A stretch of 57,719 nt of DNA from Catellatospora bangladeshensis (GTDB lineage Bacteria; Actinomycetota; Actinomycetes; Mycobacteriales; Micromonosporaceae). The stretch covers positions 1 through 57,719 of the forward strand of contig NZ_BONF01000013.1 of assembly GCF_016862575.1 (NCBI RefSeq), in the 5' to 3' direction. A program made the translations under genes and the position numbers. The stretch's first letter is position 1, and each line of letters begins with the position of its first letter. Shown piece after piece: positions 12,880-38,808 of the stretch. Under the pieces are notes generated by a model. That model saw only the letters and a program-made list of their open reading frames with translations. It was not told the DNA's origin and did no database searches.

Positions 12880-12944
12880 AAGATCCCCGTCTCGTGTCCA
12901 AAGGTGTGCTGTGACCGCATGTTTCGACACGAGACCGCGATCAT
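12880..12944 (+). repeat. Family A GATC-bounded palindromic element, copy A1
   Basis: GATC at 12882-12885 and 12939-12942 are exactly 61 bases apart end to end. The arms GATC-ccc-GTCTCGTGTC (12882-12898) and GACACGAGAC-cgc-GATC (12926-12942) pair with two mismatches. The 27-base centre is a degenerate version of the inner stem-loop. It lies 22 bases after the stop of the MidA-type methyltransferase gene (minus strand). Confidence 0.85.
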
Positions 12945-12965
12945 GCCCCGTCGGCGGGCCGGGTC

Positions 12966-14042
12966 TCAGGACGTGGGACGGCCGGAAGGGGGCGCGACAG
13001 GGTGGAGCAGGGGGACGCGGTGCGGGTCGAGGCCGGTCCAGTGGGCGAGCCACCAGTGGGCGCCGAGGCCGGCGGGGGCGGTCAGTTCGGCGATCTCGCT
13101 TGCGGCGGCCAGGGCACGCACGTAGCCGACGGGGTCGGTCGAGGCCAGGGTCAGCGGCGGCCGGGCGCCGTCGAGGCCGAGGCGGGCGAGCGCTTCGCGC
13201 TGGCGTACCAGCAGATGGTCTTCGCCGGCCGCAGCGGCCGCGGAGTCCAGGGCGACGTGGCAGGTGATGTCGGTCGTGCCGTCGAAGGCGGGCAGGACCT
13301 CCCGCCCATCGCGGAAGCCCGTCGCGGTGGGCAGCGGAGGCCGGTCCTCGCGCAGGTGCCCGTAGTCCACCGCGAGCGCGAGCCCAGCGGTGACCGCGCC
13401 GACCGCCTCGGCCCAGGCCTCGTCGCGGGCCCGCCCGACCTCCACGATCTCGCCGGGCGCCGCAGGCCACCACCGCGCGACCCAGTCCGCGTCGGCCGCG
13501 TCGAGCGGACCGCACGCAGCGAGTGAGGTGTCCAGGTAAGTATCGTCCCGCGCCAGGTCCAGCGGCACGTTGTCGAGCCATTCCGTCGCCAGCAGCAACC
13601 CGGTCAGCCCGCGCGGCACGTCGGTCCGCCACTCGATCCGGCCCGGCTCTATCTCGCTGCCTCGCAGTGCGTCGTCGCCGCCTGCTGAGCCGCCGCGCGG
13701 TGCGTCCGCTGAGCGGTCCGGAGCCGAGGGCGGCGACGACGGGATCGTCACGCCCTCGCGGGGCGTGATCTCGACGCCGACCGCGCGGACGCGAGCCCGC
13801 AACCGCTCGGGTAGGGCGACCATCACCCCAGTGAGCAGCTCGCCGCCGCCCGCGCCGACGTCCACCAGGTCGAACACCTCCGGGGAGCCGAGCGCGGCGT
13901 CGAGGTCCACGGCGAGCCGGGCGATCGCTCGCGCGAAGTGGGGGGAGTGGGCGCTGGTCCGGAAGTGGGCGGCGGGCCGGTCCCGGACGAAGAACCCGTC
14001 CGGGCCGTACAGCGCCGTTCGCATCGCGTCCCGCCATCGCAT
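12966..14042 (-). CDS. MidA/NDUFAF7-type SAM-dependent methyltransferase (DUF185)
   Basis: 358 aa. The SAM-binding motif DLVDVGAGGGELLTG is followed by LLLATEWLDNVPLDL, corresponding to the NExxDALP motif of this family, then LAVDYGHLRED and the GTTDITCHVALD segment typical of DUF185/MidA proteins. The mitochondrial relative NDUFAF7 symmetrically dimethylates an arginine of NDUFS2, the NuoD homologue. Here the next gene downstream on the same strand is an orphan nuoD, which makes NuoD2 an obvious candidate substrate (inference). A Ser/Asp/Gly-rich insertion interrupts the domain near residues 105-130. Confidence 0.85.
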   Translation of the reverse strand: MRWRDAMRTALYGPDGFFVRDRPAAHFRTSAHSPHFARAIARLAVDLDAALGSPEVFDLVDVGAGGGELLTGVMVALPERLRARVRAVGVEITPREGVTIPSSPPSAPDRSADAPRGGSAGGDDALRGSEIEPGRIEWRTDVPRGLTGLLLATEWLDNVPLDLARDDTYLDTSLAACGPLDAADADWVARWWPAAPGEIVEVGRARDEAWAEAVGAVTAGLALAVDYGHLREDRPPLPTATGFRDGREVLPAFDGTTDITCHVALDSAAAAAGEDHLLVRQREALARLGLDGARPPLTLASTDPVGYVRALAAASEIAELTAPAGLGAHWWLAHWTGLDPHRVPLLHPVAPPSGRPTS

Positions 14043-14148
14043 GGGTGCGGTTCACTCTCCGTTCGTCGCCGGCCGCCCTGCCGAATCTACGGTCCGCCGC
14101 CCGCGGATCGATCGCACCCACCGGGTTCGCGGTCCTGAGAGCGCGGTC

Positions 14149-14191
14149 ACGAACGGCGCTCCCGGGACGTGGTTCCGGGGGCGCCGTTCGT
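14149..14191. promoter_or_regulatory. 17-bp hairpin in divergent region upstream of pantothenate genes
   Basis: ACGAACGGCGCTCCCGG (14149-14165) pairs with 14175-14191 across a 9-base loop; the only irregular position becomes a G-U pair in RNA. It lies between the divergent methyltransferase gene (start 14042) and the DUF2520 gene (start 14310), so it is either an operator or a structured 5' leader of the pantothenate operon. No T tail follows, so it is not a plain terminator. Confidence 0.5.
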
Positions 14192-14309
14192 TGGTGCTTA
14201 TGTGAACATTCCGCGGCAGTGCGGTTTCGCACAGTCTCTGTCCAGCGCTCCGAAGCCGGGCGCATACTTGCGGCGACCGGTACCCCGAAGAAGAGGACTG
14301 GATCGTCAC

Positions 14310-15230
14310 ATGAGTGCTGAGCTCACCGTGGGTGTGATCGGCGCCGGCCGGGTGGGTGCGGTCCTCGCCGCCGCCCTGGAGGCCGCCGGGCACCACGTCG
14401 TCGCGGCCTCGGGCGTCTCCGCCGCCGCCAAGCACCGCATCCGCACCCTGCTCCCGGGTGCCGTCAACCTTCCCGCCGACGAGGTGGCCCGCGCCGCGGC
14501 CGACCTGCTGGTCATCGCCGTGCCGGACGACGCCCTCGCGGGCGTGGTGACCGGCCTGGCCGCGACCGGCGCGCTGCGGCCCGGCCAGGTCGTGGCGCAC
14601 ACCTCCGGCGCGCACGGGCTGGCCGTGCTGGCCCCGGCCGCCGCCGTGGGCGCCCGGCCGCTGGCGCTGCACCCGGCGATGACCTTCACCGGCACCCCGG
14701 CCGACCTGGGCCGGCTGCCCGGCATCTCGTACGGCGTCACCGCCGCCGACTCCGGCGTACGCGAACTCGCCGCCGCGCTCGTCGCGGACCTGGGCGGCTC
14801 CCCGGAGTGGATCGCCGAGGACCGGCGCGCGCTCTACCACGCGGGCCTCGCGCACGGCGCGAACCACCTGGTCACGCTCGTGAACGAGGCGGCCGACCGG
14901 CTGCGCGACGCGGGGGTGCTGAGCCCGGATAAGGTGCTCGGGCCGCTGCTGACGGCCGCGCTGGAGAACGCGCTCAAGATGGGCGACGCGGCGATCACCG
15001 GCCCGGTGTCGCGCGGCGACGCGGGCACGGTCGCCCGGCACGTACGCGAACTGGAGCGCACCGCCCCCGACTCGCTGCCCGCGTACGTGGCACTGGCCCG
15101 GCGCACCGCCGACCGGGCGATCGCCACCGGCCGGCTGCGCGCGACGGACGCCGAGCCGCTGCTGGGCGTGCTCGCCGACTCCACCGCCGCGGACGCCGGG
15201 CACGTCGGCCTCGGCGAGGCCGCGAAGTGA
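14310..15230 (+). CDS. Rossmann-like/DUF2520 protein, candidate ketopantoate reductase
   Basis: 306 aa. The N-terminal NAD(P)-binding Rossmann fold starts with TVGVIGAGRVGAVLAAAL; LLVIAVPDDAL follows, and the C-terminal half is helical (DUF2520: ALYHAGLAHGANHLVTLV...). The two-domain plan is that of 6-phosphogluconate/ketopantoate-reductase-like enzymes. It overlaps panC by 4 bases (GTGA) and heads the panC-panD operon, and no recognisable panE lies in the window. Reduction of ketopantoate is therefore a reasonable but unproven role. Start ATG 14310, with AGAGGA upstream at a long spacing. Confidence 0.85.
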   Translation: MSAELTVGVIGAGRVGAVLAAALEAAGHHVVAASGVSAAAKHRIRTLLPGAVNLPADEVARAAADLLVIAVPDDALAGVVTGLAATGALRPGQVVAHTSGAHGLAVLAPAAAVGARPLALHPAMTFTGTPADLGRLPGISYGVTAADSGVRELAAALVADLGGSPEWIAEDRRALYHAGLAHGANHLVTLVNEAADRLRDAGVLSPDKVLGPLLTAALENALKMGDAAITGPVSRGDAGTVARHVRELERTAPDSLPAYVALARRTADRAIATGRLRATDAEPLLGVLADSTAADAGHVGLGEAAK

Positions 15231-38077: not shown

Positions 38078-38091
38078 AGAGAGGCGGCGCG

Positions 38092-38562
38092 GTGAGGGTC
38101 GGTATCGGTACGGATGTGCACGCGTTCGACGCAGAGCGGCCGTGCTGGGTGGCCGGGCTGCACTGGCCGGACTCGCCCGGCCTGGCCGGGCACTCCGACG
38201 CGGACGTCGCCGCGCACGCCGCCTGCGACGCCCTGTTCAGCGCGGCGGGCCTGGGCGACCTGGGCGCCAACTTCGGCACCGACCGGCCGGAGTGGTCCGG
38301 CGCCGCGGGCGTGGTGCTGCTGGCCGAGGCCGCCCGCCGGGTACGCGCGGCAGGCTTCGCCATCGGCAACGTCTCCATCCAGGTCATCGGCGTCAGCCCG
38401 AAGATCGGCAAGCGCCGCGGCGAGGCTCAGCGAGTGCTCTCCGAAGCCGCCGGCGCCCCCGTCACCGTCTCCGGCACCACCACCGACGGCCTGGGCCTCA
38501 CCGGCCGCGGCGAGGGCCTCGCCGCCATCGCCGTAGCCCTCCTCACCCCCACCACCCCCTGA
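38092..38562 (+). CDS. ispF: 2-C-methyl-D-erythritol 2,4-cyclodiphosphate synthase
   Basis: 156 aa. Fifth step of the MEP pathway; with ispD it forms the usual pair. Metal ligands Asp8 and His10 (GTDVHAF) and His42 are in the standard positions; GHSDADV, ANFGTDRPEW and GLTGRGEGLAAIAV are conserved. GTG 38092 is preferred because the family begins at RVGIGTD and AGAGGCGG precedes it; the ORF to 38050 would run through element B1. Confidence 0.95.
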   Translation: MRVGIGTDVHAFDAERPCWVAGLHWPDSPGLAGHSDADVAAHAACDALFSAAGLGDLGANFGTDRPEWSGAAGVVLLAEAARRVRAAGFAIGNVSIQVIGVSPKIGKRRGEAQRVLSEAAGAPVTVSGTTTDGLGLTGRGEGLAAIAVALLTPTTP

Positions 38563-38617
38563 CCTCCCCCCAGGCCACCGCTCCCTCCCACCCGCCCCGC
38601 CCCGCGCGCTGGCTCGG

Positions 38618-38658
38618 GGCACCGTTCCGACCCCGGGCGATCTTGCGCGAACGGTGCC
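38618..38658. repeat. Inverted repeat overlapping element D
   Basis: GGCACCGTTC (38618-38627) and GAACGGTGCC (38649-38658) are perfect 10-base arms. They overlap the left arm of element D, so the two hairpins are mutually exclusive. Confidence 0.6.
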
Positions 38659-38705
38659 GACGACACGCGCCAACCGGGCATAAGGGCAACACTTCGCGCA
38701 AGATC
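38639..38705. repeat. GATC-bounded palindromic element D
   Basis: GATCTTGCGCGAA (38639-38651) and TTCGCGCAAGATC (38693-38705) are perfect 13-base arms; the total is 67 bases. The stem sequence is unrelated to families A and B but has the same GATC ends and similar size. It lies downstream of ispF. Confidence 0.78.
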
Positions 38706-38743
38706 GGCGCAGTCCTCGGCGCTGTTGCGTGAGCGCCGCTGGG

Positions 38744-38808
38744 TTGATCGCTGTTTCGTGTCGGAAGGTGTGGTCCAGCTGCACTTCTTGACACGAAACA
38801 GCGATCAA
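38744..38808 (+). repeat. Family A element, copy A5 (perfect stem)
   Basis: GATC at 38746-38749 and 38803-38806, 61 bases. TTGATCGCTGTTTCGTGTC and GACACGAAACAGCGATCAA are perfect 19-base arms. Relative to A1-A4 it has TT/AA instead of AA/TT at the ends and T/A instead of C/G at one stem pair: both sides changed together. Confidence 0.9.

What the first reader, a model, noticed from the sequence alone, without database searches (positions are those of the whole stretch)
12880..38808. Family A: five 61-base GATC-to-GATC hairpin elements with compensatory stem changes
Copies at 12880, 28543, 28648, 28754 and 38744 have exactly the same length and the same plan: 17-19-base outer arms (GATC...CTCGTGTC / GACACGAG...GATC), GGAA/TTCC, and an inner TGCGGT-CTG-ACCGCA hairpin. 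In A5 the stem pair C/G becomes T/A and the end AA/TT becomes TT/AA, with both partners changed. That pattern indicates selection for the folded form (RNA hairpin or cruciform DNA). All lie just after stop codons. They resemble REP/BIME or non-autonomous palindromic elements, but I do not recognise them as a described family.
Basis: seen in the sequence. Interest (0 to 1): 0.82.

Follow-up and report, generated by a model that had tools for sequence, protein, structure and literature searches.

The report
Helix-phased 61-bp palindromes at gene ends
A soil actinomycete carries about 220 copies of a DNA palindrome of 61 letters, mostly near the ends of genes, and neighbouring copies sit whole turns of the DNA helix apart, which suggests that a protein binds them side by side; neither the protein nor the purpose is known.

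Summary
The five copies are real and belong to a family with 220 exact-core copies in this genome (probably Catellatospora) and 214 in a close relative. Length is rigid: 86 of 88 facing half-site pairs in the sample are 61 bp. The compensatory-stem argument fails: inner pairs match no better than halves swapped between copies, and transcript-sense G-U and A-C mismatches are equal, 70 v 66. A weak outer-arm excess remains. No Y1 (RAYT-type) transposase was found.
New: (1) 59 of 61 gaps between neighbouring copies lie at 33-34, 42-45, 54-55, 64-66 or 86 bp, 10.57 bp per step; Rayleigh p about 2e-15 with one gap per spacer class. (2) At 18 sites shared with the relative, core letters differ at 5/396, free letters at 39/108, flanks are 68% identical; decayed copies are nearly absent. 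(3) Copies favour gene 3' ends, convergent pairs above all. (4) Three more GATC-bounded rigid families share the genome.
Best reading: a selected double-stranded binding site for an unidentified protein, perhaps a transcription roadblock. Protein and function are inferred.

The parts
12882..12942 (.). Family A element 1 (61 bp, GATC to GATC)
28545..28605 (.). Family A element 2, first of a 3-copy array (gaps 44 and 45 bp)
28650..28710 (.). Family A element 3 (one arm mismatch, GACACCA)
28756..28816 (.). Family A element 4
38746..38806 (.). Family A element 5, 40 bp from a family C element
38639..38705 (.). Family C element (67 bp, GATC to GATC), neighbour of element 5
38020..38074 (+). Family B element (GATCATGAACTTA...GATC, 55 bp)
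   Evidence: (D18)
57367..57421 (+). Family B element (55 bp)
   Evidence: (D18)
12783..12833 (-). Family P repeat (AAGAAGGTGCCCTTCC type), not GATC-bounded; approximate ends

Best explanation
Family A is a two-fold symmetric, double-stranded DNA recognition site. Each 30-bp half (consensus SAW-GATC-GC-N-R-T-Y-TCGTGTC-RR-AA-N-S-TG-N-GG-Y-C, SAW lying just outside) is read largely independently by one side of a dimeric or multimeric protein, and the two halves are held at a rigid distance (61 bp) around one central base pair. Complexes on neighbouring sites touch along one face of the helix, so sites are kept at whole-turn distances (9, 10, 11, 12 or 14 turns centre to centre). SHOWN by computation: rigid length, independence of the inner halves, helical phasing, conservation of core letters in place, 3'-end location. 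INFERRED: that a protein binds, that neighbouring complexes touch, and what it does. Most likely role: a DNA-level boundary at gene 3' ends, between convergent genes above all, that stops or holds up RNA polymerase (roadblock terminator). The confidence below is for the selected double-stranded-DNA-site part; that the role is a transcription roadblock or insulation I put at about 0.35.
For: Length: 86 of 88 facing half-site pairs 40-130 bp long are exactly 61 (the others 60 and 96) in 1,725,153 bp of own genome. Inner halves independent. Helical phasing: 61 gaps in two genomes, fitted step 10.57 bp, residual sd 0.80 bp; G000 alone n=36, R=0.876; G007 alone n=25, R=0.928; outside the 41-46 peak 26 of 28 within 1.6 bp of the ladder. 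One gap per spacer-similarity class n=42, R=0.898, p=1.9e-15; outside the peak 16 of 17 in phase. A-C neighbours (searched from 14 to 44 bp): gaps 29-30 in 8 and 39-41 in 10 of 19 pairs over the two genomes, some shared by both; one is 26 (match length minus 26). Selection in place: 18 shared single-copy sites, core 5/396 differ, degenerate 74/324, free 39/108, 40-bp flanks 68% identical. Nearly all or nothing: with a profile built from these copies, 86 windows of the sample score 60 bits or more, 3 score 30-50, none 8-30. In all 8 sites that lack a copy in one of the two genomes, the target gap has no ungapped remnant (best -59.3 bits). Location: of 71 elements 30 convergent, 31 tandem, 4 divergent, 5 at contig edges, 1 inside a called gene; the nearest gene boundary is a stop in 58 of 66. 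No wobble preference in transcript sense between co-directional genes: GU 70, AC 66, other 136.
Against: No binding protein has been found. Copy number in the genus runs from 0 (4 of 11 genomes) to 220, odd for a host function. Elements are about 2 kcal/mol more stable as RNA hairpins than half-swapped ones, and outer pairs 7, 8, 10, 18 covary weakly. Phasing could come from where new copies insert rather than from selection. Off-ladder gaps: 47 (G000) and 52 (G007) among the 61, 49 between a degenerate copy and its neighbour, A-B gaps of 27 and 26; the other A-B gaps (19, 20, 30, 41) sit about half a turn from the A-A ladder and are few. Core conservation was measured on copies that passed a limit of 3 core mismatches; empty sites were checked apart. 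The sample is not random: it is about twice as dense in elements as the genome. Gene calls are from my own script. Asymmetric families B and C point with transcription, D does not; an RNA-level role would also give orientation.
Confidence: 0.6

Rival explanations
1. Non-autonomous mobile palindrome (MITE-like): each half is a transposon end, copies spread with a transposase in trans, and new copies insert near old ones on the same helix face, giving phased arrays without any host function.
For: Lineage-specific amplification: 220 and 214 copies in two close genomes, 0-36 in the nine others of the genus. Eight sites present in one genome and absent without remnant in the other. Array copy number differs at shared sites.
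Against: In 1.205 Mb only 7 half-site hits lie outside known elements: two at contig ends, two the arms of one 60-bp variant, three weak. Nearly no decaying copies, and core letters differ at 1.3% v 36% at free positions in shared copies. At the three empty sites laid out (C5 25454, 79760, 293514) the flanks differ too, so no clean insertion or target duplication could be defined.
Confidence: 0.2
2. Transcribed RNA hairpins at 3' ends (intrinsic terminators or mRNA 3' stabilisers), selected as folded RNA.
For: 3'-end location. Strong predicted fold, mean -34.3 kcal/mol in G000, about 2 kcal/mol better than half-swapped controls. Asymmetric families C (22 of 25) and B (11 of 13) point with transcription in tandem gaps.
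Against: Inner pairs at chance; AC mismatches as common as GU in transcript sense; RNA hairpins have no evident reason to be spaced by 10.57 bp on DNA; rigid 61-bp length.
Confidence: 0.12
3. REP/BIME element mobilised by a RAYT (Y1 transposase).
For: Intergenic, palindromic, high copy, 3' ends, small arrays.
Against: No Y1_Tnp (PF01797) match in the own genome, while the same search rings in 5 of 14 control genomes; inner stem not kept paired; phasing.
Confidence: 0.03
4. Sites for a topology or nucleoid protein that deals with supercoils where convergent genes meet.
For: Convergent preference: family A in 35 of 155 convergent gaps v 5 of 233 divergent. Spacings of 9-14 turns would suit wrapping or bridging (inference).
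Against: A universal protein does not explain 0 exact-core copies in 4 of 11 genus genomes or so specific a consensus.
Confidence: 0.15

Closest known systems
REP/BIME elements with RAYT transposases (features recalled, not from a call)
   Same: Interspersed intergenic palindromes, hundreds of copies, 3' ends, small arrays
   Different: No Y1 transposase found; rigid 61-bp length; inner halves independent; helix-phased spacing across unlike spacers
MITEs (features recalled; one search is a search listing only)
   Same: Short, inverted ends, lineage-specific amplification
   Different: No cognate transposon or lone ends in the 1.205 Mb scanned; no target duplication defined; core letters conserved in place
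Roadblock terminator sites such as eukaryotic Reb1 or TTF-I sites (recalled)
   Same: Protein-bound DNA at gene 3' ends, able to work in arrays
   Different: Protein unknown here and nothing tested; I know of no genome-wide bacterial family of this kind
WhiA sites (GACAC) of Streptomyces venezuelae (PMC3781837; passages seen)
   Same: GACAC/GTGTC lies in the core of families A, B and C
   Different: Those sites are short, asymmetric and upstream of target genes; family A is a 61-bp dyad at gene ends. A lead only

Membership tests
REP/BIME with RAYT | RAYT (Y1_Tnp) gene in the genome | tested here: not met
   0 matches for PF01797 in G000; 5 of 14 control genomes ring
REP/BIME with RAYT | Stem kept paired across copies | tested here: inconclusive
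   Inner pairs at chance; weak excess in outer arms and 2 kcal/mol better energy than swapped halves
REP/BIME with RAYT | GTAG-type tetranucleotide at the foot of the hairpin (recalled) | tested here: not met
   GATC on 140 of 142 arms of the 71 profiled copies; these were picked partly by GATC, and none of the window's five copies has GTAG there
MITE | Same ends on a larger autonomous transposon | tested here: inconclusive
   None in 1.205 Mb of 8.83 Mb; the rest of the genome was not scanned for lone ends
MITE | Target-site duplication at empty/filled pairs | tested here: inconclusive
   Three empty sites laid out: flanks also differ
Intrinsic terminator / RNA 3' hairpin | Structure selected at RNA level (covariation, GU preferred to AC) | tested here: not met
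   GU 70 v AC 66; inner pairs at chance, though overall energy is 2 kcal/mol better than swapped
Intrinsic terminator / RNA 3' hairpin | Transcript 3' ends at the element | not testable with these tools
   No RNA data
Rfam family | Match above gathering score | tested here: not met
   0 matches in the window
Protein-bound DNA dyad with phased arrays | Helical phasing of neighbouring sites | tested here: met
   59 of 61 gaps on the ladder
Protein-bound DNA dyad with phased arrays | A protein that binds it | not testable with these tools
   No candidate identified
WhiA regulon sites | GACAC sites upstream of genes, bound by WhiA | not tested
   Motif shared only; elements favour 3' ends

The most novel reading that the evidence does not exclude
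A genus-specific, DNA-level system of gene-end punctuation: several GATC-bounded, rigid-length dyad families (A 61 bp, B 55, C 67, D 75) are read by a dedicated protein or protein set that assembles on one helix face at gene 3' ends and blocks or insulates transcription between convergent genes. Together with repeat family P they mark 87 of 155 convergent gaps of 61 bp or more in the sample. No such genome-wide bacterial system is known to me.
Probability: 0.3. Interest if true: 0.93.

Novelty: new variant of a known kind. Interest (0 to 1): 0.8.

Why it matters
Interspersed palindromes in bacteria are usually filed as REP- or MITE-like debris, or as RNA hairpins. Here the gap spectrum carries the pitch of the DNA helix, and copies shared by two genomes keep their core letters while flanks and free letters drift. 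That is computed evidence that a high-copy intergenic repeat works as double-stranded DNA and is selected. It turns 'what are these repeats for' into a testable question (find the protein that reads the half-site) and suggests that gene ends in this actinomycete may be marked by bound protein and not only by RNA hairpins.

Tried and rejected
Compensatory folding: tested on 71, then on 88 and 42 copies, and not supported for the inner stem. RAYT: none. Rfam: none in the window. Lone half-sites as transposon ends: 7 hits outside known elements in 1.205 Mb, of which two lie at contig ends, two are the arms of one 60-bp variant and three score only 14-20 bits. Plasmid and phage records: 5 and 1 records with short matches at E about 1, no element. 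Phase of the distance from stop codon to element: none, R=0.10, n=67. Replication polarity of the asymmetric families was not computed. Literature: no description found (search listings only; most subscription papers are not held). One search was my own slip: the pattern was 66 bp long, not 67; rerun. Read as a length control: at 66 bp 0 in G000 and in G007 (one each in G001 and G010), at 67 bp 84 and 72.
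Full report
OBSERVATION. The window holds five 61-bp GATC-to-GATC palindromes at the places described, 2 bp downstream of the stated starts. The own genome (8,826,584 bp, 115 contigs) has 226 matches to TCGTGTC-N15..35-GACACGA, 220 of them with a spacer of exactly 27. G007, a close relative in one contig, has 214; G006 has 36; G001, G002, G003, G010 have 10-14; G004, G005, G008, G009 have 0. Outside the genus 2 of 50 genomes have one hit each. These are exact-core counts; looser forms may exist in the genomes with 0.

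SAMPLE. I read 1,205,153 bp and later 1,725,153 bp of G000, and 1.08 Mb of G007, in pieces. The sample is denser in elements than the genome: 45 exact copies in 849,570 bp against 220 in 8.83 Mb. It is not random, and I do not know why it is denser.

ANATOMY. In 71 aligned copies GATC (140 of 142 arms) and TCGTGTC are nearly invariant on both arms; other positions are two-letter classes (Y, R, S, W) or free. The copies were picked partly by these letters. Facing half-sites occur 86 times at 61 bp, once at 60 and once at 96. Half-sites are practically never alone. With a profile built from the copies, 61-bp windows of the sample are bimodal: 86 at 60 bits or more, 3 at 30-50, none at 8-30.

FOLDING TEST. 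Across copies, symmetric pairs in the inner 13 positions match at chance: 7.35 v 7.27 in G000 (n=88, 601 of 2000 swaps as high), 7.14 v 7.40 in G007 (n=42, 1769 of 2000). Over all 30 pairs there is a small excess in G000 (3 of 2000), from outer positions 7, 8, 10, 18, and a weaker one in G007 (187 of 2000). Mean RNA energy is -34.29 against -32.16 for swapped halves in G000, and -33.95 against -31.60 in G007, 0 of 60 swaps as low in each. In 5 of the 9 loci from other Catellatospora genomes the outer arms are fully complementary (my reading), so descent from a more perfect palindrome may explain the residue; that is inference. In transcript sense, for copies between co-directional genes, GU and AC mismatches are equal (70 and 66, other 136). 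A selected RNA hairpin should prefer GU.

HELICAL PHASING. Two copies are often neighbours, and the spacers of different arrays are mostly unlike one another. A pattern search of seven genus genomes for gaps 28-58 and 59-89 found 36 pairs in G000, 25 in G007 and none in the other five. The gaps are 33-34 (12), 42-45 (33), 54-55 (8), 64-66 (5) and 86 (1), with 47 and 52 the two off the ladder. A straight-line fit gives 10.57 bp per step with 0.80 bp residual; the best single period in a scan is 10.65. Some sites are shared by the two genomes and some arrays arose by duplication, so I also took one gap per class of similar spacer: 42 classes (single linkage; one class holds 14 gaps), R=0.898, p=1.9e-15, and outside the main peak 16 of 17 in phase. 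In the local sample, which includes degenerate copies (gaps of 49, 96 and 98 as well), 15 spacer classes give R=0.79, p=9e-5. Centre to centre the ladder is 9, 10, 11, 12 and 14 helical turns. Family A and family C neighbours, searched from 14 to 44 bp, lie at 29-30 (8), 39-41 (10) or 26 (1) (I judged family C by GATCTTGC). A-B neighbours lie at 20, 20, 20, 30, 30, 41 in the sample and at 19, 20, 27 (G000) and 20, 26 (G007) in the whole-genome search; the two sets overlap. Most of these sit about half a turn off the A-A ladder, and 26-27 fits neither. The distance from stop codon to element shows no phase (R=0.10, n=67), so the pitch belongs to element-element spacing. I could not separate selection from phased insertion.

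EVOLUTION. Of 37 G000 clusters in four contigs, 33 had collinear anchors in G007; 29 of these hold a copy there and 4 do not. In the reverse direction 36 G007 clusters gave 35 with anchors, 31 with a copy in G000 and 4 without. None of the 8 empty sites holds an ungapped remnant (best score -59.3). At 18 sites with one copy in each genome, core letters differ at 5 of 396, degenerate letters at 74 of 324, free letters at 39 of 108; 40-bp flanks are 68% identical. Random copies would differ at about 70% of free letters (my arithmetic), so shared copies keep a memory of descent and are not simply overwritten. I read this as purifying selection in place, with the caution that detection allows at most 3 core mismatches. 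Families B, C and D show a like contrast of fixed ends and drifting interiors (there GATC is fixed by the search). Arrays shrink by recombination between copies: at C5 168306, C8 225027 and C8 201289 and C4 207970 the single G007 copy looks like a chimera of two G000 copies.

LOCATION. Of 71 elements, 30 lie between convergent genes, 31 between co-directional genes, 4 between divergent genes, 5 at contig edges, 1 inside a called gene; available gap positions were 11,159, 44,889 and 25,294 respectively. The nearest boundary is a stop codon in 58 of 66; between co-directional genes 28 of 32 are nearer the stop. In the larger sample family A occupies 35 of 155 convergent, 27 of 493 tandem and 5 of 233 divergent gaps of 61 bp or more; with families B, C, D and P the figures are 87, 101 and 15. 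The genes come from a codon-based caller that I wrote, so single strands may be wrong.

WHAT IT IS. Rigid length, independent inner halves and whole-turn spacing together point to a protein assembly on double-stranded DNA. Conservation in place says the site matters. The 3'-end position, and the orientation of asymmetric families C (22 of 25) and B (11 of 13) with transcription in tandem gaps, suggest a role at transcription ends; family D shows no bias (5 v 5). A roadblock is the simplest reading, but it is inference. The shared GACAC core recalls WhiA, whose sites are short and upstream of genes (PMC3781837, passages); a lead, not a test.

LIMITS. The range from 0 to 220 copies within the genus favours some form of spread, so a mobile origin followed by use is possible.

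Noticed in passing
window 38020-38074 and 57367-57421; 52 copies in the G000+G007 sample: Family B: GATC-bounded, 55 bp (64 of 83 anchors), TTGATCATGAACTTA ends, asymmetric core with GTGTC; points with transcription in 11 of 13 tandem gaps.
   Followed up: partly
window 38639-38705; 81 copies in the G000+G007 sample: Family C: GATC-bounded, 67 bp; 84 pattern matches in G000, 72 in G007, 10-29 in G002, G003, G005, G006, G010, none in the other four genus genomes or the 50 outside the genus; points with transcription in 22 of 25 tandem gaps.
   Followed up: partly
e.g. near L016:3182; 55 copies in the G000+G007 sample: Family D: GATC-bounded, 75 bp (107 of 111 anchors), CCGACTTGCCTGGCA arms; no orientation bias in tandem gaps, 5 v 5.
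   Followed up: partly
window 12783-12833 and many other gaps: Family P (AAGAAGGTGCCCTTCC), not GATC-bounded, nearer stops and strongly oriented: opposite to the genes in 17 of 23 tandem cases and to the nearer gene in 22 of 23 convergent cases, by the strand convention used. It may be an RNA-level terminator.
   Followed up: partly
G000:C11:342930-343034 and G007:C1:3229149-3229253: Family A half-sites repeated head to tail at 41-42 bp (about four helical turns) in both genomes.
   Followed up: no
G000 sampled contigs; G007 4.3-7.4 Mb: Family A is about twice as dense in the sampled contigs as in the genome; in G007 only 2 of the 25 listed pairs lie between 4.3 and 7.4 Mb.
   Followed up: no
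family A half-site positions 22-23 and 9-10: Strong dependence between adjacent letters inside a half (mostly CC, AG, GG, TC, TG, GC at 22-23), with none on the opposite half at 22-23.
   Followed up: partly
window 16589-19422: Three consecutive similar genes (repeats D1, D4, D7, about 950-1000 bp apart), a likely tandem gene triplication.
   Followed up: no
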